Assembly (NCBI RefSeq): GCF_011603255.1
Contig: NZ_JAANCM010000003.1
Location: 186,001 to 250,000, forward strand
Length of the DNA stretch: 64,000 bases
Direction of reading: 5' to 3'
Source of the DNA: Ferranicluibacter rubi
GTDB taxonomy: Bacteria; Pseudomonadota; Alphaproteobacteria; Rhizobiales; Rhizobiaceae
Shown here: piece after piece, positions 23,917-40,004 of the stretch
Layout: each line of letters begins with the position of its first letter
Numbering within the stretch: position 1 is the stretch's first letter
Notes under the pieces: model-generated
Told to the model about the DNA's origin: nothing
The model's database searches: none
The model's input: only the letters and a program-made list of their open reading frames with translations
Position numbers and translations under genes: made by a program

Positions 23917-24903
23917 ATGACGTTCAAAGCTTTGCTCACCTCCAAGGATGGCGATACGCTCTCCACGAAGCTCGTAGATCTGACCGAGTCCGATCTGATG
24001 GACGGCGACGTGACGGTCGCCGTGGATTACTCGACCGTGAACTACAAGGACGGGATGGCCGTGACCGGGCGGCTGCCGGTGATCCAGACCTTTCCGCTCG
24101 TTCCCGGCATCGACCTCGCCGGAACGGTGGAAGTGTCTTCCCATCCCGATTTCAAGGTTGGCGACCGGGTGGTGGCCAACGGCTGGGGGCTCAGCCAGAC
24201 CCATCACGGCGGATATGCGCAGAAGGCAAGGTTGAGCGGAGACTGGCTCGTCAAGCTCTCCGAATCGCTCTCCACAAAGGATGCGATGGCCATCGGCACT
24301 GCCGGCTACACGGCCATGCTGTCGGTGCTGGCTCTCGAACATGGCGGGATCACGCCCGATAAAGGCGATATCCTCGTGACAGGCGCCAATGGCGGCGTCG
24401 GATCAGTTGCCATCGCACTGCTCTCGGGTCTCGGATACCGCGTCATCGCCTCCACGGGCAGACTTGAGGAAACAGCCTATCTGCGGGAACTCGGCGCGGC
24501 AGAGGTCATCGATCGGAACACATTGTCGGAACCGGGCGCGCCCGTTGCGGCCGAACGCTGGGCCGGTGCGATCGACAGCGTCGGCAGTCATACGCTGGCA
24601 AACGTCCTGGCACAGACCAAATATCGCGGCGTCGTCACCAGCTGCGGCCTTGCCCAGGGCCGTGACCTTCCCGCTACTGTGCTCCCGTTCATCCTGCGCA
24701 ACATCACCCTTGCCGGCATCGACTCGGTCAATGCGCCGCAGACGGTGCGTCTGGAAGCCTGGTCCCGTCTTGCCCGCGATCTGGATCTCGCAAAGCTTGC
24801 GCGCACGACGACCGTCATCGGTCTGGCGCAGGTCCCCGGCGTCGCCGAGAGCATTCTGGGCGGGCATGTTCAGGGCCGCACGGTCGTCGATGTCAATCTT
24901 TAG
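23917..24903 (+). CDS. AcuI/YhdH-family MDR oxidoreductase, cassette copy 1
   Basis: 328-residue NADPH-dependent medium-chain reductase of the YhdH/AcuI group, whose characterised members reduce acryloyl-CoA or related activated double bonds. Seen: MTFKALLTSKDGDTLSTKLV, VDYSTVNYKDGMAVTGR, PLVPGIDLAGTVEVSSHPDF, ANGWGLSQTHHGGYAQKARL, the Rossmann motif TGANGGVGSVAIAL and AERWAGAIDSVGSHTLANVL, all standard for this family. No zinc ligands. The ATG follows a GGAAGAAG ribosome site. Lies 155 bp after the SDR gene; a truncated close relative lies at 39.0-39.75 kb. Confidence 0.9.
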   Translation: MTFKALLTSKDGDTLSTKLVDLTESDLMDGDVTVAVDYSTVNYKDGMAVTGRLPVIQTFPLVPGIDLAGTVEVSSHPDFKVGDRVVANGWGLSQTHHGGYAQKARLSGDWLVKLSESLSTKDAMAIGTAGYTAMLSVLALEHGGITPDKGDILVTGANGGVGSVAIALLSGLGYRVIASTGRLEETAYLRELGAAEVIDRNTLSEPGAPVAAERWAGAIDSVGSHTLANVLAQTKYRGVVTSCGLAQGRDLPATVLPFILRNITLAGIDSVNAPQTVRLEAWSRLARDLDLAKLARTTTVIGLAQVPGVAESILGGHVQGRTVVDVNL

Positions 24904-27461: not shown

Positions 27462-27485
27462 TCGCGATCACATATGCGTGTCAAC

Positions 27486-27506
27486 GGCGGAGTAAAAACC
27501 GGCCAC
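27486..27506. repeat. IS21 left inverted repeat
   Basis: Starts GGCGGAGTAAAAACCGG; pairs with 29910-29930 at 20 of 21 positions. Confidence 0.85.
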
Positions 27507-27540
27507 GCGGCGGCGCAAAAGTCGGCCACCTTGGCCCGGG

Positions 27541-27584
27541 CATGAGACCCGCGGGAGGGCGTAGCCCGAGCGGGGGGTCTCATG
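27541..27584. terminator. Long hairpin near IS21 left end
   Basis: CATGAGACCC (27541-27550) pairs perfectly with GGGTCTCATG (27575-27584); an inner GGGC-GTA-GCCC lies between them. It sits 27 bases beyond the end of istB and probably terminates or insulates IS transcripts. Confidence 0.5.
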
Positions 27585-27610
27585 CGCGAGCGGCGATTTT
27601 TGAGAGGGCT

Positions 27611-28369
27611 TCAGCCGGCCTTTTTAGCGCGGCTTTGGGCGAGACGATAGCTGTCGCCATTCATCTCAAGGATACTAACGTGGTGAGTGATGCGATCAAG
27701 CAGTGCTCCGGTGAGACGCTCCAATCCCAAGGTTTTCGTCCATTCGTCAAATGGAAGATTGCTGGTGATGAGGGTAGCGCCCCGTTCGTAACGTTGCGAT
27801 ATCAGCTCGAAGAGTAATTCTGCGCCGGTCTTGGAGAGCGGCACGAAGCCCAGCTCGTCGATGATCAGCAGGTTATAGGCGGCCATCTGCTTCTGGAAAC
27901 GGAGAAGACGCCGCTCGTCGCGCGCCTCCATCATCTCGCTGACCAGGGCGGCGGCAGTGGTGAACCAGACGGACAGGCCCTTCTGGCATGCTGCAAGGCC
28001 GAGGCCGAGAGCAACATGGGTCTTTCCTGTACCACTCGGGCCGAGAGCGATGACGTTCTCCCGGCGCTCGATCCATTCGCATCGCGCCAGTTCCAGCACC
28101 TGCATCTTGTTGAGTTTGGGAATGGCTGCGAAGTCGAAGCTGTCGAGGCTTTTGACGACGGGGAATTTGGCCGCCTTGATACGGCGTTCGACCTTGCGGC
28201 GATCCCGCTCGATCATCTCCCGCTCGGCAAGCCGGGTGAGGTATCCGACATGATCAACGCCTTCGGTGGCGCATAGCCTTGCCAGTTTCTGATACTCACG
28301 CTGGAACGTCGGCAGCTTCAGGGTCTTGAGATAATGCGAGAGCAGGATCTCTGGGACTTCGGTGCTCAT
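27611..28369 (-). CDS. istB: IS21 transposition helper ATPase IstB
   Basis: DnaC/DnaA-like AAA+ ATPase that assembles on target DNA and activates the IstA transposase. About 252 residues, full length. Seen: Walker A GPSGTGKT (residues 110-117), Walker B NLLIIDELGFVPLSKTGAEL, sensor region ATLITSNLPFDEW, and C-terminal RLTGALLDRITHHVSILEMN. Start ATG 28369 (STEVPEILLSHYLKTLKLP) overlaps the end of istA by 4 bp. The gene is intact even though istA is interrupted. Confidence 0.93.
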   Translation of the reverse strand: MSTEVPEILLSHYLKTLKLPTFQREYQKLARLCATEGVDHVGYLTRLAEREMIERDRRKVERRIKAAKFPVVKSLDSFDFAAIPKLNKMQVLELARCEWIERRENVIALGPSGTGKTHVALGLGLAACQKGLSVWFTTAAALVSEMMEARDERRLLRFQKQMAAYNLLIIDELGFVPLSKTGAELLFELISQRYERGATLITSNLPFDEWTKTLGLERLTGALLDRITHHVSILEMNGDSYRLAQSRAKKAG

Positions 28370-29862
28370 GCCGCTTCTCCCGCATCCGACGACAGGAGGC
28401 GCATGTAGGCCTTCGCCGACGTCGTCTCGACCGTCGCCCTCGGCAGGTAGGGGTAGATGGACAGGTCCAGGCGAGGCGGCCGGCGTTCCACCCGGCACAG
28501 GATCAGATGCTTGACGGCGTCAAAGCCGATGGCTCCGAGCTGGAGGGCCTGCTTCACCGCCGCGTTAAGGTCGGCAAGCTCAAAGCTCTCCAGCAGGCGC
28601 AGGACTTGCACCTACTCACGCCGGCCGTGCTTGGCCATGCGGCCCTCCATCAGACGGCGCAGCGTGGCGAACTCTTCGGGCAAGTCCCAGCCCTGGAGAG
28701 GCGCTGCCTGATCCAGCGAATTGATCTTCTGCTCGATCAGCGGCAGGTAGTGCACAGGATCGAAGACGACGTCTTCCCGGTCCCAGTTCCGCGGATGGCG
28801 GGCGATAATCTCGCCACGGCAGCCAATCACCACTTCGTCGACATAGCCCCGGACCCAAACATCCTGATGGCCGTAGGCGACCGGGACGGAATAGTCGTTG
28901 GTCTTGTAGCGAACGAGCGACTAGGCCGTGACTTTCGCACTCGCCTGGTCGCAGGCATCGAATGGAGATGCCGGCAACGCACGCATAGCAGCCAGATCAC
29001 GCTGCAGTCGCTCTCCGATCGTCTCGCTCTCGCCGCGCAGCCTGTCGTGCTGACGCTTGCGGCATTGCTCCTCGAGCCAGATATTGAATGCACCCCATGT
29101 CGGAAACTGCGGGATCGGAACCATGAAGTTGCGCCTGCTATAGCCAACAATCCCCTCGACGTTTCCCTTTTCGTTGCCCTTGCCTGGCCGCCCGTAACGA
29201 TCCCGGATCAGGTAGTGGGACAGGAAGCCGCTGAACAGTGTTGCCCGCTTGCGTGTGCCATCGGGCAGGATCTTCGCTACATGGCAGCGGTCGTTGTCGT
29301 AGACGATCGAGTGCGGCACGGCCCCGAACAAAGCAACCGCATGGATGTGGCCATCGACCCAAGCTTCCCACACTGCCGCCGGATGGGCCCGCACATAGCA
29401 ACGGTCGCTATGCGGCAGATCCAGTACGAAGAAGTGCGCCTTCCGCTCTACGCCACCGATCACCACCATCGCCTCGCCGAAATCGGCCTGCCCATGGCCT
29501 GGCGGATGAGCCAGCGGCACGAACACCTCTTGGCGACGCTGATCTCGCTCGCGCATGTAATCCTTGATGATCGTGTAGCCGCCGGTGAACCCGCGCTCGT
29601 CTCGAAGACGGTCGAACACCCGCTTGGCCGTATGGCGCTGCTTGCGCGGAACCTTCAGGTCTTCTTCCAGCCAATCCTCGATCGTTGAAACGAAAGCATC
29701 CAGCTTAGGTCGCCGGATCGGCAACTGACGCTGATAGCCGGGCGGTGTCGAATACGACACCATCTTGGCAACGCTGTCGCGAGATATGTTGAAATGCTTC
29801 GCAGCCTGACGCCGGCTCATCCCTTCAGAACAAGCAAGTCGAACCTTCAGATATAATTCCAC
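28366..29862 (-). pseudogene. istA: IS21 transposase IstA with two in-frame amber codons
   Basis: DDE transposase of about 500 codons. Seen: N-terminal helix-turn-helix SRRQAAKHFNISRDSVAKM, catalytic-core segments GHGQADFGEAMVVIGG (first Asp), AVPHSIVYDNDRCHV (second Asp) and GKGNEKGNVEGIVGYSRRNF (Glu), and the C-terminal beta-barrel LVRYKTNDYSVPVAYG. The same frame is broken by TAG at 28921-28923 (after AKVTA) and again by TAG at 28612-28614 (after HGRRE, where relatives have a tyrosine). Everything between and after them still reads as good IstA. GTG 29862 is the likely start; ATG 29889 is an alternative. Probably inactive unless amber codons are read through. Confidence 0.88.
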
Positions 29863-29909
29863 GGTGTAGATCCCCAAGCCCTCCTGCATTCGTCGCAGAA
29901 GGGAAATAG

Positions 29910-29930
29910 GTGGCCGGATTTTACTCCGCC
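29910..29930. repeat. IS21 right inverted repeat
   Basis: Reverse complement of the left repeat with one mismatch; ends TTTTACTCCGCC, 12 bases inside the GACA terminus. Confidence 0.85.
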
Positions 29931-29993
29931 CGAAGCGGGACAATCCCGCCGCTACCGTGGACTAATTTTGCACCGCCGCTCTCAGAAGGAGCG

Positions 29994-30253: not shown

Positions 30254-33200
30254 CTATCGGCTCAACCCAAGCCCCTTCGTTCGGCTGAGCTGCTGCTTCA
30301 ACGTGTGATCCCGCGTGAGCTCCGCCATGCGGGCGCGCTCCACGATACGGGCAACGCTTTTGATCGTCTCGGCCTGTTTTGCGAGCTCAGGCCGCTTCTC
30401 AAGCTCGGGGGCAAAGTTCCGCGGATCGGAATGCCCGAACCGAAGCGTGAGCGCATCGGCCACCCGCTTCGCTTCTTCCAGCGCGATCCTGCCCTCCGGC
30501 GTTGACCGCAACTGATCGATGAGCGGACCCTGTTTGTCGATCGCTGCCTTTTCCACCTGGGCAATGAGCTCGAAGCTGCGAGGTGTCAGCCCGGGCACCT
30601 CGACGCCATCGCGTTTCTCCCGCTGCCAGGTTTCCGATGCCCGCTCCGCATCCAGGCGCCGTTCCCAGGCTTTCGAGACATGGCCGATATGGGCGGCCAC
30701 CGCCTTTGCGATCTCCGTTGCCTGTTTGCGCTCCTTGTTGTCGCCAAGCAGCCCCGACCTGCCACGCAGCTCCCCGAACCGCTCCGGCTGTTTGGCCATG
30801 ATCGTCGCGAGTTCTTTCCCCCTCCCCGTCTTCTCGGTGATGCCTGTGCGCAGCTGACGTGTGACGGCCTCCGGATCCTGGAACACCTGCTGCGCGAGCG
30901 ACGCGACCGTCCCGAACCTGTGCTCGACCACCGATGCGGCCTTCTCGCGCGCGACCTCCTCGATACCGCGGTCGTAGCGGGTGACGGCTGGCACAAGCGG
31001 TTCTGGACGCTGAGACCCGCCCGGACCCTTGCGCTCTGCGTTCACACGGTCCAAGGCGATCTCGCTGCGAATGCCGGCCTTTTCCGCAATCCCCCGGCGA
31101 TGGGCGAAGTCCTCGGTGTAGTCGAGCGTCGTTTCCTTGACGCCCGAGCGGCTGAGCCGCTCCTCGAGCTGCCGGAATGCCAGATCCTCCCCGGTGAGCA
31201 CGCTCCAGCGGTTGCGTGTCACGGCGCTTCCATCGGGAAGCCGAACCGGATCCGAGCCGACGCGCTCAAGCCGTATCGCTGCACCAACCTCTGGCGCTGC
31301 TGCCTCCATCGCGCGTTTGAGATCCGTGCCCCAGACCGTCTGCGTCTCGCCTTTGTCCGTCTTGATCGTGACGAAGGTGCTGTCGCGGTTTTTGGGATCG
31401 TGGGCATAGGGTGCGGTACCGAACGCCACCAGCCGACCGGCGCTCGCGTCTGTGAACGCGTCCTGGCTCGCATAGAGCTGGACGCTGTCACGATGCCGCG
31501 TCATGGCGACATAGGTCAGGTGACGGTCCATCGTCTTCGACGCCATCACAAACGCACGATCGACGGTGGCGCCTTGCGTCTTGTGGATGGTGGTCGCATA
31601 GCCGTGATCAAAGGACTGGTAACTTTTGGTGGGTATGGTGACGATGCGGTCATTGTTCTGACCGCGACCAGCACCATCGTCGAGCTGAACCTGTATTGCG
31701 TCCGGCTCGACGGTCCGCACGGTCCCGAGCATCCCGTTCTTCACGCCGAGATCCCGATCGTTTTCCAGAAACACCAGCCGGTCACTGGGTGCAAAGGCGC
31801 GCGCACCGTTGCTCGTCTGGAACGACAGCTCACCATTCTCCCCGCCGCGTGCCAGACGGCCGGTGTCCTGAAGCGCTGAACGGATATCGGCGTTGATGGC
31901 GGAGACGTCGGCTCGGCGATGCGCCATGGCAACCCGGCTGCCCTGCGGGCGGGCCTCCAGATCCGCAACGGTGTCGCGCACGATGGCGGACCGCGCATCA
32001 TCCACCGTCTGGCTGAACCGGATGTCGCCATGCCGCCGATACGCCGCCAGGCCCTCCGCCGTCTTGTGCGTGGCAAACGACACGGATGCTGCGCGCTGCC
32101 AGTCCACGCGCTGACGACGGATGTCGGAGAGCGCACTGTGCCCGATCTGCTCGGCGATCGCCCGGAACGGCGCGCCGGCTCCGATCGCCTGCAGCTGTTC
32201 GTGGTCGCCAACCAGGACGATCTTTGCACCGCGCTTCTCGACCTCGCGCAGAACCCGAGCAAGCTGGCGACTGCCGACCATGCCCGCCTCGTCAATCACG
32301 AACACGTCACGCCGGCCAGGCAGCTGACGATCGTTCTGCCACCGCATCTCCCAGGAGGCGAGCGTGCGGGAGGCAATGCCAGACGACTCTTCCAGCCCTT
32401 CCGCCGCCTTCCCCGACAGTGCTGCACCCTGCACCTGATAGCCCTGGCGCTGCCAGGCTTCCCGCGCGGCCGTCAGCATGGTCGACTTGCCCGCACCGGC
32501 ATAGCCGACGACAACCGCAATACGCTCAGGTCCCGTGACATGTTCGATCGCCGCCTGCTGCTCTGCGGACAACCGCGCCGCGGAAAGGCGCCGATCGCGC
32601 TCTGCGGTGTCCAGCTCGCCACGCTCGACCTTTGCTACCGTATCGCTGGCAATGCCTGCTCGAAGCGCCGCATTCTGGCGGCGGATCGCATGATCGATAT
32701 GCTGACGAGCGACCCCATGTGTGCGCGCTGCCTGCAGCCTTTCAGCGCTCTTCGCCATCCCGTTTTCTATCTCGACCATCTCGCGCGTCGAATAGCGCGC
32801 GAGCGCAATCCTGCCGGTCGCGTCATGCGTTCGTTCCGGCTGCAACGCGACCAGTGCCGGCGAGGCCATGACGGTTGCGAACGCGTTCTGGAACGCTTGG
32901 GCATCGTCGTTGATGTATCGATGCAAAGCACGCGCGACATCGTGGCGGTCAAAGACGCTCTTCTCGCCTGTGATGATCGCCAGCACCTCCTCCGGTTTCT
33001 TGCGAATGAGATCGGCGTTGCGCCTGGCGGCATCCTCATCCAGTCGCGCGCGAGTGATATCCTGGCCGCGGCGTTGCATCTGTGTCGCGTGAACGCCGGC
33101 ATGTTCCGTCGGCTCAATCTCCAGTCCGCGCTCGGCATGACTACGATGATCGACGCGAATATCGAGACCTGCACGGGCAAGATGCGCATTGGTCATCTGT

Positions 33201-33757
33201 TCGAACGATTGGCGGATATCGCGAAGCTGCATCTGCGATGTCGGAAGGTCGTTCGACAGCAGCCATTTGTTCTCACGCTCGATGTAGGTTTTGTCCGCAA
33301 GCCCCTCCCCTGTCACCTGCCGCGTGGTCATCATGATGTGCGCGTGGTGATTTCGAACGTCGCTGGCGGAATGCGGACGATGCACGGCAAAATCCACCGC
33401 CGCGCCATGACGGTTTGCCAGCTCCTGGGCGAACTCCCGCGTCAGATCAATACGCTGTTCCGCAGTCAGCTCATGCGGTAGCGCCACCTCGAATTCGCGG
33501 GCAACACGGGCGTCCTTCCGGTTCTCGGCTTTCTCCGCCGCATTCCACAAGGCCGATCGATCCCGCGCCCACTCAGTATCCACGCCTTCGGGAAACACGA
33601 TCTCCGCATGCTCAACACCCTGCTTGGCGCGAAAATCATGCGTTAGGCCATCGCGCTCGTTGGTGAGCTTTTCTGCAGCACGATAGGCAGCGGATGCGAC
33701 CGCGCTGCGGCCACCGCTCCTTGCAATCGGCTTCATGCTGCAATGGTAGATCGCCAT
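30254..33757 (-). CDS. traA: Conjugal transfer relaxase/helicase TraA (Ti-plasmid type)
   Basis: Bifunctional DNA-transfer protein of 1167 residues: it nicks oriT and unwinds the transferred strand. Seen: N-terminal MobA/MobL relaxase (MAIYHCSMKPIARSGGRSAV, with the metal-binding HHAH at residues 137-140), then a RecD/TraI-like helicase with Walker A GYAGAGKST (418-426), DVFVIDEAGMVGSRQL (motif II), VGDHEQLQAIGAGAPF (motif III) and YATTIHKTQGATVDRAFV (motif V/VI), and a long helical C-terminus. ATG 33757 gives the family N-terminus; longer readings add a random leader. The probable oriT lies 39-68 bases upstream of its start. Intact. Confidence 0.94.
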   Translation of the reverse strand: MAIYHCSMKPIARSGGRSAVASAAYRAAEKLTNERDGLTHDFRAKQGVEHAEIVFPEGVDTEWARDRSALWNAAEKAENRKDARVAREFEVALPHELTAEQRIDLTREFAQELANRHGAAVDFAVHRPHSASDVRNHHAHIMMTTRQVTGEGLADKTYIERENKWLLSNDLPTSQMQLRDIRQSFEQMTNAHLARAGLDIRVDHRSHAERGLEIEPTEHAGVHATQMQRRGQDITRARLDEDAARRNADLIRKKPEEVLAIITGEKSVFDRHDVARALHRYINDDAQAFQNAFATVMASPALVALQPERTHDATGRIALARYSTREMVEIENGMAKSAERLQAARTHGVARQHIDHAIRRQNAALRAGIASDTVAKVERGELDTAERDRRLSAARLSAEQQAAIEHVTGPERIAVVVGYAGAGKSTMLTAAREAWQRQGYQVQGAALSGKAAEGLEESSGIASRTLASWEMRWQNDRQLPGRRDVFVIDEAGMVGSRQLARVLREVEKRGAKIVLVGDHEQLQAIGAGAPFRAIAEQIGHSALSDIRRQRVDWQRAASVSFATHKTAEGLAAYRRHGDIRFSQTVDDARSAIVRDTVADLEARPQGSRVAMAHRRADVSAINADIRSALQDTGRLARGGENGELSFQTSNGARAFAPSDRLVFLENDRDLGVKNGMLGTVRTVEPDAIQVQLDDGAGRGQNNDRIVTIPTKSYQSFDHGYATTIHKTQGATVDRAFVMASKTMDRHLTYVAMTRHRDSVQLYASQDAFTDASAGRLVAFGTAPYAHDPKNRDSTFVTIKTDKGETQTVWGTDLKRAMEAAAPEVGAAIRLERVGSDPVRLPDGSAVTRNRWSVLTGEDLAFRQLEERLSRSGVKETTLDYTEDFAHRRGIAEKAGIRSEIALDRVNAERKGPGGSQRPEPLVPAVTRYDRGIEEVAREKAASVVEHRFGTVASLAQQVFQDPEAVTRQLRTGITEKTGRGKELATIMAKQPERFGELRGRSGLLGDNKERKQATEIAKAVAAHIGHVSKAWERRLDAERASETWQREKRDGVEVPGLTPRSFELIAQVEKAAIDKQGPLIDQLRSTPEGRIALEEAKRVADALTLRFGHSDPRNFAPELEKRPELAKQAETIKSVARIVERARMAELTRDHTLKQQLSRTKGLGLSR

Positions 33758-33795
33758 GTCCGTGGTCGCCTTTCCCGATGCGCCATCGGCCACTT

Positions 33796-33825
33796 GAGTT
33801 GCGCAGCAACTCGTAAGTGCGCCCT
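33796..33825. other. Origin of transfer (oriT), RSF1010/Ti-type nick region
   Basis: A hairpin GAGTTGC-GCA-GCAACTC (33796-33812) is followed directly by G and TAAGTGCGCCCT (33814-33825). The latter is the nick-region consensus of the RSF1010 (IncQ)/pTiC58 oriT family, where cleavage falls after TAAGTGCG, here predicted between 33821 and 33822. An outer CACTT (33791-33795) can also pair with AAGTG. It lies between divergent traA and traD, exactly where Ti plasmids keep oriT. Confidence 0.88.
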
Positions 33826-33965
33826 TGTGCCTCATTCGCTTCGCTCTCTTCGTACGGGATCTCACAGGGTGCCGCTATTTGTAGGATTCACCAAATTGCC
33901 GATGCGACAGCCGCTCCGTAGCCTCGCCCCTGATGTGGATGACTCGGATCAGGAAGGATCACAAC

Positions 33966-34337
33966 ATGGCGCGAAAGAGCATTGGGGAACGGCTGGCCCA
34001 GATCGAGGCCCAGCGCAAAACGCTCAAAGCCCGGTTGGGAAAGCAGGAGCGATCGGAAGAGACAAGGCGCAAGATCCTGCTGGGCGCACTGGTGCTTCAC
34101 CGGCTTCAGACGAACGGCAACAGCACGTTCACACGGCAGCTCGATGACTGGCTGAGACGCGAGCTGCCAGGCTTCCTGACACGCGAGGCCGATCACGCGC
34201 TCTTTGCCGATCTGCTGCAACCGGATCCGCTTCCATCAAGCCCGCTTCCATCAGATCAAGTGACGACACCCTCTGCGACAACGGGCAGCAATGGCGCGGA
34301 CAGGCACGGTGAGACCGAAGGCGAGGTGGCGCCATGA
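33966..34337 (+). CDS. traD: Conjugal transfer protein TraD (rhizobial small Tra protein)
   Basis: 123-residue protein of the small TraC/TraD class encoded between oriT and traG. Seen: MARKSIGERLAQIEAQRKTL, then a basic helix (KARLGKQERSEETRRKILLG), a helical core (ALVLHRLQTNGNSTF) and a low-complexity tail. Rhizobial TraD proteins are probably relaxosome accessory DNA-binding proteins. ATG 33966 follows AGGAAGGA; it overlaps traG by 4 bp (ATGA at 34334). Symbol assigned by position and wording; TraC is the alternative. Confidence 0.75.
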   Translation: MARKSIGERLAQIEAQRKTLKARLGKQERSEETRRKILLGALVLHRLQTNGNSTFTRQLDDWLRRELPGFLTREADHALFADLLQPDPLPSSPLPSDQVTTPSATTGSNGADRHGETEGEVAP

Positions 34338-36007
34338 ACCGGATGACCCGCACCTTTGACGCCTTCAGCACCATGTTGCGGCAGGTGGCCCGTGATCCGC
34401 TCTGGGCGATCGTCGCCCTGATCGCGGCACCCTTCCGCTATTCAAAGATGGTCGCAAGGGCCGCCGTCTATTTGATGATCGTTCTCTTCGCTGCGGTTGT
34501 CGCACGTGACTATCTGCTACGGCTTGCCGGCAGTGTGACGCATGACGCGCTCTGGTATCTCGGCAACATCGTTCTGACCCTCGTTGCGATCGCCTTCGTA
34601 TTCCGCGTGATCAGCGAACCGTTGATCCTGCACTTCGGCTCGAGCGACGATGCCACGCATGGCTCGGCCCGGCTTGCGACCACCAGAGAGATCGCGCCAC
34701 TCATCAACGCGCCCTCGGGCTTGCTGATCGGTCGCGATCCGAGAACGGGCAAACTTCTGCGCTATGACGGACCGGCCCATCTCCTCACCATGGCGCCGAC
34801 GAGGTCTGGCAAAGGTGTCGGCACCATCATCCCGAACCTGCTGACGGCGGATCGCTCGGTGATCTGCATTGATCCGAAAGGCGAGAACGCGATGGTGACA
34901 GGGCGTGCGCGCGAACGCTTCGGCCCGGTTCATGTTCTCGATCCTTTCGGTGTCACCGGTCGACCGTCCTCGACCTTCAATCCGCTCGACCAGATCGATC
35001 CCGACAGCGTCGATGTCGCCGAGGACGCAAGCACACTTGCCGATGCATTGGTGTTTGACGAGCCGGGTCTGTCCGGCGAGGCGCACTGGAACGAAGAGGC
35101 AAAAGCGCTGATCACCGGTCTGATCCTTCACATCGTTATCAACGAGCCGCCAGCCCGGCGAACGCTTGCCACCCTGCGCGACAATCTGACCCTTGATCCC
35201 GGTGCCTTTGCAGCGCTTTTGAAGACCATGCAGGTGTCCCTAGGCGCCAGTTCTGCCGGCAACCTTGTTGCGCGTGCCGCCAACCGTCATCTTGCCAAAT
35301 CCGACCGCGAGGCGGCCGGTGTTCTGTCATCCGCCCAACGTCACACGCACTTCCTCGACAGTCCGCGCATGACGGCTGTTCTCGCACGATCCGATGTCCG
35401 GTTTGCCGATCTGAAAGCGCGTCACGCCACGGTGTTCCTCGTGCTGCCGCCGGATCGGCTTTCGGCCTATTCCCGCTGGCTGCGCCTGCTCGTCACCCAG
35501 AGCCTCACGGACATGGCGCGCGATCGGCAAAAGCCGGATGTCCCCGTGCTCTATCTTCTCGACGAGTTCGCAAGCCTTGGGTATCTCGCGCCCGTCAGCC
35601 AGGCCATGGGATTGATGGCCGGCTACGGCGTCCAGCTCTGGCCGATCCTGCAGGACATCCATCAACTACGCGCCACATACGAGAAACGCGCCGGCACGTT
35701 CCTGTCGAATGCCGGCGTCCTTCAGGTGTTCGGCGTCAACGATCACGAGAGTGCCCGGTTGATCTCCGATCTCCTTGGACAGGAGACGGTCGTCTTCCAG
35801 ACAATGGGACGCAATCTCGATGCGAGCGATCCTGGCATCTCGCTCAGCCAGCAGCACACCGGCCGTGCCCTCATGACACCTGACGAGGTGCGCAATCTGC
35901 CAAAGGAGGTCGAGCTTCTGTTCCTTGCCGGGCAACGTCCAATCGTTGCGCGCAAGCTCGCTTACTATTCCGACCCAGAGTTCGCAGGCGCGTTTGATCC
36001 GGCATGA
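34334..36007 (+). CDS. traG: Type IV coupling protein TraG (VirD4 family)
   Basis: Inner-membrane ATPase that links the relaxosome to a type IV secretion channel. 557 residues. Seen: N-terminal membrane segments (AAVYLMIVLFAAVVARDYLL; YLGNIVLTLVAIAFVFRVIS), Walker A APTRSGKGVGTIIP (154-167), DRSVICIDPKGENAM, and Walker B PVLYLLDEFASLGYL, followed by GVNDHESARLISDLLGQETV. Slightly shorter than pTi TraG (about 630-660 residues), mainly at the C-terminus, but all motifs are present. The stop overlaps the following small gene. No mating-pair-formation genes are present in this window. Confidence 0.93.
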   Translation: MNRMTRTFDAFSTMLRQVARDPLWAIVALIAAPFRYSKMVARAAVYLMIVLFAAVVARDYLLRLAGSVTHDALWYLGNIVLTLVAIAFVFRVISEPLILHFGSSDDATHGSARLATTREIAPLINAPSGLLIGRDPRTGKLLRYDGPAHLLTMAPTRSGKGVGTIIPNLLTADRSVICIDPKGENAMVTGRARERFGPVHVLDPFGVTGRPSSTFNPLDQIDPDSVDVAEDASTLADALVFDEPGLSGEAHWNEEAKALITGLILHIVINEPPARRTLATLRDNLTLDPGAFAALLKTMQVSLGASSAGNLVARAANRHLAKSDREAAGVLSSAQRHTHFLDSPRMTAVLARSDVRFADLKARHATVFLVLPPDRLSAYSRWLRLLVTQSLTDMARDRQKPDVPVLYLLDEFASLGYLAPVSQAMGLMAGYGVQLWPILQDIHQLRATYEKRAGTFLSNAGVLQVFGVNDHESARLISDLLGQETVVFQTMGRNLDASDPGISLSQQHTGRALMTPDEVRNLPKEVELLFLAGQRPIVARKLAYYSDPEFAGAFDPA

Positions 36008-38597: not shown

Positions 38598-39009
38598 TCA
38601 CGCCAACCGCTTTCCAGCCTCCCCGTTCAACCGTAGCAGTGCCATCATCATCGGCCCGAGTGAAAACTCCCCGCGCGCCGCCCGGCTGGTGAGATCACGT
38701 AGATAGCCGCCCGCGGAGTTGATATGCGCCGCCCTCTCAAGGATACAGGCAATCGCAACCGCTGCGTTTTCAGGCCCCATGGTTTCGCACGCCTCCTGAT
38801 AGGCCGACGGGCTCACACCCAGCATCGATCTCACCACAACCGCGGCCGACATGAGATCACGCCAATCACCCACAGATCCTGCCGGACCATAGTCGATAAT
38901 CTGTGGGCATGCCTTCAGCACGACACCCAGAGGAAAGGCCTTCAGCGTCTCTCTGTCAGGCCCGCGGTTCTTCGTCGGCTTTCCGCCCTGGTCTTTTTCA
39001 AAGCTAGGT
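38598..39009 (-). pseudogene. repC: RepC replication initiator, 3' fragment
   Basis: The last ~135 codons of RepC, the initiator of repABC plasmids. Seen: AFPLGVVLKACPQIIDYGPA, WRDLMSAAVVVRSMLGVSPS, AYQEACETMGPENAAVAIAC and ILERAAHINSAGGYLRDLTS, the highly conserved RepC C-terminus. The N-terminal DNA-binding half (about 270 residues) is absent: near 39010 the sequence passes straight into the truncated AcuI-like gene. It shows that this tract once belonged to a repABC replicon; it cannot initiate replication. Confidence 0.9.
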
Positions 39010-39751
39010 GTCCCTGAGCGATGCCGCAAGCGGTTACCACACCGCGATATCTGGTTTGTGCCAATACGTTCGCCAGCGTGTGGCTGCCAACCGAGTCCAC
39101 CGCGCCTGCCCAACGCTCGGCCGCGACAGGCTCTCCCGGTTCGGAGAGCGTGCGGCGGTCGATGATTTCGGCAGCGCCGAGTTCGCGCAGATAATCGGCC
39201 TCTTCGGGACGCCCGGTCGAGGCGACAACCCGGTAGCCCAGATTGGAAAGAAGCGCGATCGCAAGCGATCCAACACCGCCATTCGCTCCGGTCACGAGGA
39301 TGTCGCCCCGCTCCGGAGTGATTCCACCATGTTCAAGAGCCAGTACGGACAGCATGGCGGTGTAGCCTGCGGTGCCGATCGCCATGGCATCCTTGGTCGA
39401 GAACGGCTCCGGGATCTTGACGAGCCAGTCGCCGTTCAGCCGCGCTTTCTGCGCGTAGCCGCCATGATGCGTCTGGCCCAGCCCCCAGCCATTGGCGACG
39501 ACCCGATCGCCGATCGTGATGCCGGGATAGGAAGAGGCTTCCACCGTTCCTGCGAAATCGATGCCCGGGATCAACGGAAACTGCTTGATGACGTCATAAT
39601 CGCCCAGTGCCCCAGCGTCCTTGTAGTTCACGGTCGAATAGTCGACCGTAACCGTGACGTTCCCCGGCATGAGGTCCTTGTCTTCAAGTTCGACCACGTT
39701 GGTCGAAAGTTTATCGCCATCTTTGGTAGCCAAAAGCGCTTTGAAGGTCAT
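39010..39751 (-). pseudogene. Truncated AcuI/YhdH-family reductase, cassette copy 2
   Basis: Starts ATG 39751 after AGGACAGAAGA and reads MTFKALLATKDGDKLSTNVV, VDYSTVNYKDAGALGDYDVI, ANGWGLGQTHHGGYAQKARL, VTGANGGVGSLAIALLSNLG and AERWAGAVDSVGSHTLANVL, closely paralleling the gene at 23917. Homology stops after VVTACGIAQG, about 80 residues short of the normal end, at the junction with the repC fragment; the frame then runs antisense-like into repC DNA. The missing end contributes to the nucleotide domain and dimer surface, so it is unlikely to work. Confidence 0.85.
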
Positions 39752-39849
39752 TCTTCTGTCCTTTGTCGGGTAGTGAAGATGAATATGGCCCACCTGATAT
39801 TCCTTGTCGGTGCACGACCGGAAATCAGGCGGCCAAGTCGAGGCTGCGA

Positions 39850-40004
39850 TCAGACCGGCATGCCGAACTGCTGGCGCAAAGCCTTGTCGAACACCGATGC
39901 GGGCAAGAGACGTCGCAGCAAGCTGACCTGGCCAGGGCCTCGGCACTCGCCAAACCGATGCCAAAGGATGCCCCAGTCACGATTGCAGTTCTTACGGCGT
40001 CCAT
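39850..40004 (-). pseudogene. SDR remnant with large internal deletion, cassette copy 2
   Basis: Begins ATG 40004 as MDAVRTAIVTGASFGIGLAS then AEALA, matching the first ~26 residues of the SDR at 22946, then jumps out of frame to the equivalent of that gene's last 26 codons (QVSLLRRLLPASVFDKALRQ in the third frame). About 620 bp corresponding to the middle of the gene, with the catalytic Ser, Tyr and Lys, is missing. Lies 98 bases upstream of the truncated reductase on the same strand, preserving the SDR-reductase order of copy 1. Confidence 0.85.

What the first reader, a model, noticed from the sequence alone, without database searches (positions are those of the whole stretch)
33796..33825. 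RSF1010/Ti-type oriT between traA and traD
A 7-bp hairpin is followed directly by TAAGTGCGCCCT, the nick consensus of the IncQ/pTi oriT family. It lies in the expected traA-traD gap next to an intact relaxase. The extra CACTT...AAGTG pairing that extends the hairpin into the nick region is unusual.
Basis: partly seen in the sequence, partly recalled or inferred. Interest (0 to 1): 0.72.

Follow-up and report, generated by a model that had tools for sequence, protein, structure and literature searches.

The report
Plasmid transfer origin with paired nick
This is a standard start point for plasmid transfer between bacteria; comparison with relatives shows that the bases beside its cutting site are often kept paired with a matching stretch across a hairpin, which may control or guide the cut.

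Summary
Window 33796-33812 is a 7-bp hairpin, then G, then TAAGTGCG|CCCT, identical to the nick sequence cut in RSF1010, 38 bp upstream of an intact Ti-type (MOBQ) relaxase gene, traA. It is almost certainly the oriT of that relaxase. The divergent neighbour is better called a MobC-type mobilization gene than traD; a VirD4/TraG-like coupling gene follows. No RepC or VirB4 was found on this contig.

The "unusual" extra pairing is not peculiar to this site. The CACTT version is rare, but an outer stem joining the foot of the hairpin to the bases 5' of nic recurs in MOBQ oriTs of Proteobacteria and a staphylococcus, and covaries: target GTGC with GCAC/GCGC, TTGC with GCAA/GCAG, CTGC with GCAG, GCGC with GCGC, TCGC with GCGA, CCGC with GCGG, GTGA with TCAC. 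Full 4/4 Watson-Crick partners: 51 of 145 oriTs, against a mean of 23.2 (maximum 36) with targets permuted. An RSF1010-type IncQ1 oriT lacks it, and independent contrasts are too few for significance.

Precedents are pMV158 (nested IR1/IR3) and the IS608 guide. Whether the stem closes nic or helps to place it is undecided.

The parts
33796..33812 (+). inner 7-bp hairpin (GAGTTGC GCA GCAACTC), presumed relaxase recognition stem
   Evidence: compensatory changes in relatives
33814..33825 (+). nick region TAAGTGCG|CCCT; predicted nic between 33821 and 33822 on the + strand
   Evidence: identical to the cleaved RSF1010 sequence; exact in 78 of 84 homologous upstream regions; cleavage here not tested
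33788..33795 (+). outer left arm GGCCACTT: CACTT pairs with AAGTG 33815-33819, GGC with GCC 33821-33823 past a bulged C
   Evidence: family covariation
33836..33846 (+). TCGCTTCGCTC, recurrent element on the leading side of nic, function unknown (perhaps accessory-protein binding)
   Evidence: CGCTNCGCT within 40 nt after the motif in 63 of 81 relatives, this exact 11-mer in 31 of 81
30254..33757 (-). traA, 1167-aa Ti-type MOBQ relaxase-helicase with a BID-like segment
33966..34337 (+). mobC-like mobilization protein, 123 aa
   Evidence: 74% identical over 84 residues to the mobilization protein of Aminobacter pUSP5; weak Pfam TraD match under cut-off
34334..36007 (+). VirD4/TraG-like coupling protein, 557 aa
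   Evidence: PF02534 282.5 bits; under the cut-offs of the TraG/VirD4 models of NCBIfam

Best explanation
33788-33825 is the core of the oriT of the neighbouring TraA / MobC / coupling-protein module. TraA (a MOBQ, HUH-type relaxase) recognises the inner 7-bp stem, cuts the + strand between 33821 and 33822 and stays on the 5' CCCT end. The mobC side then enters the recipient first and traA last, with the hairpin at the 3' end of the transferred strand, where it serves rejoining. In addition, the bases just 5' of nic are complementary to a short arm at the foot of the hairpin, so that naked single-stranded or cruciform DNA forms a longer two-tier hairpin with nic at or inside its outer stem. 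The most likely role is a closed state that the relaxase must open in order to cut or rejoin, as shown by others for pMV158 (IR3 to IR1). Shown here: sequence, gene context, conservation, covariation. Inferred: nicking, strand polarity, the switch. The confidence below is for the oriT with an evolutionarily kept outer pairing; for the switch itself I would give about 0.45.
For: Nick sequence identical to the cleaved RSF1010 site. Relaxase over the TraA_Ti and MobQ cut-offs, nearest solved relatives NES 4ht4 (E 7.5e-25) and MobA 2ns6 (E 5.9e-10). The genome's other exact 12-mer lies beside its other near-identical traA. 78 of 84 homologous regions keep the exact 12-mer and inner arms change in compensating pairs. 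Outer arm follows the nick-side bases: 51 of 145 full Watson-Crick, permuted mean 23.2, maximum 36 of 5000; of 62 rows with a target other than GTGC, 39 carry their own full partner and 0 the GTGC partner. Precedent for a nested hairpin with bulge and nic at its foot, opened by the relaxase: pMV158 (PMC5863519 passages).
Against: No nicking or mobilisation data. An RSF1010-type oriT has no outer arm (L098: under 3 of 4 paired) and RSF1010 oligonucleotides without it are cut well, so the arm is not needed in general. 7 of 163 rows pair fewer than 3 of 4. In the window the 4-mer in the usual register pairs only 3 of 4, with two extra T-A pairs towards the hairpin. Independent contrasts on the relaxase tree are too few for significance (5 at -4, 4 at -5). 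The fold of another origin with a full outer arm (E. coli MOBQ, L104) is no better than shuffles (z -0.25, 76 of 200 as good).
Confidence: 0.8

Rival explanations
1. Guide model. As in IS200/IS605 (IS608) transposases, which are also HUH single-tyrosine enzymes, the short segment at the hairpin foot stays paired with the bases next to nic during catalysis and helps to place nic in the active site. Nick specificity can then drift as long as both sides change together.
For: Same order guide - hairpin - linker - cleavage site as in IS608, where a tetranucleotide 5' of the hairpin base pairs with the cleavage site (PMC5934647 passages). Partner changes with target in seven target types. Many partners lie directly at the hairpin foot (offset 0 in 23 and offset 1 in 53 of 98 rows).
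Against: RSF1010 substrates without a guide are cut. A review-type comparison gives the guide as a trait of transposases and not of relaxases (PMC7826260 passages). The paired positions are -5 to -2, whereas IS608 pairs the tetranucleotide directly at the cut. In the window the predicted stem would hold nic in duplex.
Confidence: 0.25
2. Protein half-sites. The foot segment and the nick-side segment are two half-sites in double-stranded DNA for a dimer (MobC or TraA, for example to repress traA and mobC), and complementarity only reflects the symmetry of the site.
For: In pIP501 (MOBQ) the relaxase binds the left half repeats near nic and represses its promoter (PMC4981023 passages). MobC-type genes lie beside these origins.
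Against: The distance between the two segments varies from 19 to 29 nt over 98 rows as the inner hairpin changes, which hairpin pairing explains and a rigid dimer site does not. G-T pairs are frequent (GTGC rows: 26 of 101 full Watson-Crick, 72 of 101 with G-T).
Confidence: 0.15
3. No function: the outer complementarity comes from shared ancestry and G+C-rich composition.
For: Close relatives share flanks (24 of 83 rows end in GGCGCGCT), and independent contrasts do not reach significance.
Against: Permuting targets among rows keeps composition and still halves the full matches. Reversed targets give 6 of 163, windows 6-8 nt further out give 1 of 163 (with G-T 32 and 7). The rare targets TCGC (2 of 2), CCGC (1 of 1) and GTGA (1 of 1) carry their own partner.
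Confidence: 0.12
4. Not an active oriT: a relic of a plasmid now sitting in a larger replicon without a mating apparatus.
For: No RepC and no VirB4 found on this contig; an IS21 element lies just downstream of traA.
Against: traA, mobC and the coupling gene are open; the two copies in the genome share a nearly identical intergenic region; a VirB4 gene exists on C1 and could serve in trans.
Confidence: 0.12

Closest known systems
RSF1010/R1162 oriT (IncQ1, MOBQ1)
   Same: Nick sequence TAAGTGCG|CCCT identical; hairpin ends just before it; MOBQ relaxase and a small mob gene beside it.
   Different: Other arm sequence (10-bp repeat in RSF1010 per PMC4814116, 7 bp here); the RSF1010-type record L098 has no outer arm; here the relaxase is a long TraA with helicase part.
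Origins of Ti-type TraA plasmids (MOBQ2; traA divergent from traC-traD-traG)
   Same: TraA_Ti relaxase over cut-off; oriT in the divergent gap; hairpin plus nick motif.
   Different: Those four have TraC, TraD and TraG genes and nick sequences TAATTGCG or TTACTGCG; here one MobC-like gene and a coupling protein under the TraG-Ti cut-off.
TraA / mobilization protein / T4CP modules (Aminobacter pUSP5, Agrobacterium vitis pRvVAT039d)
   Same: Same genes, MobC 74% identical over 84 residues in pUSP5, same oriT plan.
   Different: Outer arm sequence differs; in pRvVAT039d an extra gene lies between oriT and the mobilization gene.
pMV158 oriT (MOBV1) with nested IR1/IR3
   Same: Inner hairpin 8-9 nt from nic, nested in a longer hairpin with a small bulge in the right arm and nic at its foot (PMC5863519 passages).
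   Different: Other relaxase family and sequence; the switch was shown there by footprinting and is only inferred here.
IS608 (IS200/IS605) guide sequence
   Same: Short segment at the hairpin foot complementary to the bases at the cut; HUH enzyme (PMC5934647 passages).
   Different: Transposase, not relaxase; paired positions shifted by one; need for pairing not tested here.
pIP501 oriT (MOBQ3)
   Same: A second, imperfect inverted repeat near nic is already described (PMC4981023 figure legend passage).
   Different: Its sequence was not compared here.

Membership tests
MOBQ (RSF1010/pTi class) oriT | Nick consensus TAAGTGCGCCCT | tested here: met
   exact
MOBQ (RSF1010/pTi class) oriT | Inverted repeat ending just 5' of the nick motif | tested here: met
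   compensatory changes
MOBQ (RSF1010/pTi class) oriT | Adjacent MOBQ relaxase with open frame | tested here: met
   MobQ 238.4 bits (cut-off 200), TraA_Ti 992.7 (cut-off 590.45)
MOBQ (RSF1010/pTi class) oriT | Relaxase nicks between G and C; fragment is mobilised | not testable with these tools
   needs bench work
Ti-type traA-traCDG transfer region | Divergent TraC and TraD | tested here: not met
   no TraC match, TraD 17.4 bits under 22.3
Ti-type traA-traCDG transfer region | TraG-Ti coupling protein | tested here: not met
   126.6 bits to TIGR02767, cut-off 686.2
pMV158-like IR1/IR3 switch | Inner hairpin nested in a longer bulged hairpin with nic at its foot | tested here: met
   fold; here the predicted stem continues past nic
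pMV158-like IR1/IR3 switch | Relaxase shifts the longer to the shorter hairpin | not testable with these tools
   needs probing with TraA
pMV158-like IR1/IR3 switch | MOBV relaxase | tested here: not met
   MOBQ
IS608-like guide | Tetranucleotide at the hairpin foot complementary to the bases at the cut | tested here: inconclusive
   supported in the family; in the window itself 3 of 4 in the usual register
IS608-like guide | Pairing needed for cleavage and able to redirect it | not testable with these tools
   needs oligonucleotide cleavage assays

The most novel reading that the evidence does not exclude
Most MOBQ transfer origins carry a DNA guide: four or five nucleotides at the foot of the hairpin base-pair with the nucleotides next to nic and help the relaxase to place its cut, as in IS200/IS605 transposases. 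Nick specificity of conjugative plasmids could then drift by paired changes in the DNA alone, and RSF1010, the textbook model, would be the exception that lost or never had it.
Probability: 0.25. Interest if true: 0.82.

Novelty: new variant of a known kind. Interest (0 to 1): 0.5.

Why it matters
As an oriT it is ordinary: one more MOBQ origin beside its relaxase. Relaxase models place nic in single-stranded DNA 3' of the hairpin (PMC4814116 passages). If in many MOBQ origins the same nucleotides are kept complementary to the foot of the hairpin, there is either a built-in closed state or a guide. Each can be tested directly with oligonucleotides and would bear on how nick specificity evolves and perhaps on why some MOBQ relaxases prefer their own oriT in cis (PMC6856555 passages). 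It could also help to find MOBQ origins whose nick sequence departs from the consensus.

Tried and rejected
Chance: rejected. One exact 12-mer where 0.0087 is expected, in the expected place, with the genome's other exact hit beside its traA twin.

Sigma-70-type promoter or intrinsic terminator: none found in 33700-34000 by the consensus scan; other promoter types are not covered by it.

pSmeLPU88b parA-mobC-mobZ region: considered because of the name mobC. Not resolved: the passages seen give a different gene order and put TraA and MobZ in one tree (PMC13274422, PMC10194956); I did not compare MobZ with this TraA.

The extension as a peculiarity of this plasmid: rejected.

Folding as extra evidence: of three folds only the window's is informative in favour; L104 is no better than shuffles, and for L098 I gave a range that cuts off the hairpin, so that fold was not used.

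Rows dropped. 16 loci of the window's own genome (among them the C40 copy) were left out; the C1 copy stayed in. Of 202 sources scanned (window included) 31 gave no motif with hairpin; the other 171 gave 147 distinct contexts, of which L135 (relaxase N-terminus not in that match) and L215 (weak arm) were dropped: 145. Of 22 loci re-scanned at lower stringency, 7 were added (L105 and L107 with the reading) and 15 left out. Of 20 loci scanned, 11 were added and 9 left out. These 18 additions were parsed by hand after the pattern had been seen, so (145 rows) is the cleaner count; the idea itself came from looking at the earlier sets, which are part of the 145. Tree counts use the 158 of 163 rows with a relaxase stretch, contrasts the 145 of those with a readable partner 4-mer.

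Print. Papers were seen as passages only: PMC4814116, PMC5863519, PMC5934647, PMC7826260, PMC4981023, PMC6856555, PMC5789077, PMC8627217, PMC4652767, PMC13274422, PMC10194956. I found no statement of an outer stem that covaries with the nick side in MOBQ origins in the listings of searches or in those passages; pIP501 is described with a second, imperfect inverted repeat.

Full report
What is there. The window is 64 kb of a 504,505-bp contig (C33) of a 5.47-Mb genome in 42 contigs; the relatives point to the Rhizobiales (inference). At 33796-33825 the sequence is GAGTTGC GCA GCAACTC G TAAGTGCG CCCT. The 12-mer TAAGTGCGCCCT is the only exact copy in the window, with 0.0087 expected from composition. 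The cut in RSF1010 is TAAGTGCG/CCCT, read in the substrate table of PMC4814116. The single-strand fold is the inner 7-bp stem, a 2-nt bulge (G33813, T33814), CACTT/AAGTG, a bulged C, and GGC/GCC across nic: -11.6 kcal/mol, z -2.73 over 51 nt and -3.46 over 40 nt.

Genes. traA (30254-33757, minus) has no internal stop. It matches TraA_Ti and MobQ over their cut-offs and holds MobA_MobL, AAA_30 and a BID-like segment. Its nearest solved relatives by sequence are NES 4ht4 and MobA 2ns6. Divergent from it, 33966-34337 encodes a 123-aa protein, 74% identical over 84 residues to the 'mobilization protein' of Aminobacter pUSP5; it reaches only 17.4 bits to Pfam TraD (cut-off 22.3). Next is a 557-aa VirD4/TraG-like coupling protein. 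pUSP5 has the same arrangement, and A. vitis pRvVAT039d too with one extra gene. In this genome VirB4 was found only on C1 and RepC only on C14, C1 and C39. The module therefore looks like DNA processing plus coupling without its own mating apparatus on this contig; the assembly is in pieces, so this is tentative.

Relatives. One scan of genome contigs with a five-row TraA alignment (A2) kept the best 80 of 108 relatives. With the window, its C40 twin and four plasmid loci that makes 86 upstream regions; two (L023, L026) hold under 36 nt of upstream sequence. Of the 84 others 78 have the exact 12-mer, four have one mismatch, one has two, and one (L083) lacks a full motif. In the 83 with at most two mismatches 75 have 7 of 7 paired inner positions in the fixed frame (G-T counted), six have 6, and two fall out of frame because their loop has 2 nt. 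Inner arms show compensatory changes: GAGTTAC/GTAACTC, GACTTGC/GCAAGTC, GGGTTGC/GCAACCC, GGCTTGC/GCAAGCC. That is strong evidence that the inner hairpin is real. The CACTT outer arm was seen only in the window, its C40 twin, L020 and L021. A 15-mer with the nick motif, CGTAAGTGCGCCCTT, was found in 4 of 385 genomes of the class, this one included; its reversed control was zero in the rows of the table.

The outer stem. I widened the set with distant MOBQ plasmids and whole-genome searches. The four nucleotides at -5 to -2 from nic differ between groups: GTGC, TTGC, CTGC, GCGC, TCGC, CCGC, GTGA. The segment just 5' of the inner hairpin differs with them: GCAC or GCGC, GCAA or GCAG, GCAG, GCGC, GCGA, GCGG, TCAC. 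The script that picked motif and inner hairpin did not use the flank. In 145 distinct oriTs 51 have a 4/4 Watson-Crick partner within offset 0-4; with targets permuted among rows the mean is 23.2 and the maximum of 5000 is 36; with one row per target, arm and flank type it is 31 of 93 against 13.0, maximum 25. With 18 further rows added by hand (163), 64 match within offset 0-2 (permuted mean 29.1, maximum 44 of 2000; reversed target 6), and 114 match if G-T is allowed (permuted mean 72.7, maximum 88; reversed 32). Windows 6-8 nt further out give 1 of 163, or 7 with G-T, no more than permuted. By type within offset 0-3, 4/4 Watson-Crick: GTGC 26 of 101, GCGC 20 of 26, TTGC 9 of 18, CTGC 6 of 14, TCGC 2 of 2, CCGC 1 of 1, GTGA 1 of 1; with G-T 72, 22, 15, 7, 2, 1, 1. 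Of the 62 rows with another target than GTGC none carries the GTGC partner, 39 carry their own, 48 with G-T. Against this, 44 of 101 GTGC rows carry the exact partner of GCGC, which fits GTGC only through a G-T pair. In 98 rows with 4/4 pairing (G-T allowed, offset 0-2) the distance between the two segments runs from 19 to 29 nt as the inner hairpin changes length.

Limits. The rows are related; permutation keeps composition but not relatedness. On a relaxase tree of 147 rows the target type changed at least 10 times. Independent contrasts are few: 5 pairs that differ at -4 (partner follows in 4.3 on average, opposes in 0.0) and 4 that differ at -5 (1.7 and 0.0); neither can reach significance. 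Seven of 163 rows pair fewer than 3 of 4, among them L098, an IncQ1 plasmid whose oriT equals the RSF1010 stretch as I recalled it; RSF1010's own record was not held. The window's own arm is a shifted version: it lacks the pair at -2 but has two T-A pairs towards the hairpin.

How it probably works. The standard steps (relaxase on the inner stem, cut at G|C, covalent 5' end, transfer, rejoining at the hairpin of the single strand) follow the accepted relaxase model (PMC4814116 passages) and are inferred here. For the outer stem there are two precedents. In pMV158 (MOBV) a hairpin 8 nt from nic is nested in a longer one with a 3-nt bulge whose foot is at nic, and the relaxase shifts the longer to the shorter (PMC5863519 passages). 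In IS608 a guide at the hairpin foot pairs with the cleavage site (PMC5934647 passages). I favour the switch, because RSF1010 substrates are cut without such an arm and the predicted stem here runs through nic; the guide remains open.

What is new. The oriT is a new member of a known kind. The outer stem as a covarying feature of MOBQ origins was not found in print in the searches named under Tried and rejected; pIP501 is described with a second imperfect inverted repeat, so single cases have been noticed. Many relevant papers are not held here.

Noticed in passing
window 33836-33846: A recurrent element TCGCTTCGCTC lies on the leading side of nic: CGCTNCGCT within 40 nt after the motif in 63 of 81 relatives, the exact 11-mer in 31 of 81. 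Function unknown.
   Followed up: partly
genome C39:259845-260606 (L012): A stretch matching only the C-terminal part of this TraA (residues 914-1167, 91% identical) in an open frame of 291 codons, apart from any full traA match.
   Followed up: no
window about 27476-29985: An IS21-type element (istA/istB) lies just downstream of traA, where pUSP5 has a DUF6118 gene.
   Followed up: no
window 23917-24903 (+) and 38942-39946 (-): Two similar oxidoreductase-like proteins flank the transfer module in opposite orientation, judged by eye from the translations.
   Followed up: no
L258-L261, L267, L268: Origins from genomes of the phylum outside the window's class, with arms close to RSF1010's but a GCGC target; three of six (L259, L267, L268) have a full GCGC partner at the hairpin foot.
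   Followed up: partly
window TraA residues 944-1025: The C-terminal part of TraA matches the BID domain of Bartonella effectors (32 bits, cut-off 29.5).
   Followed up: no
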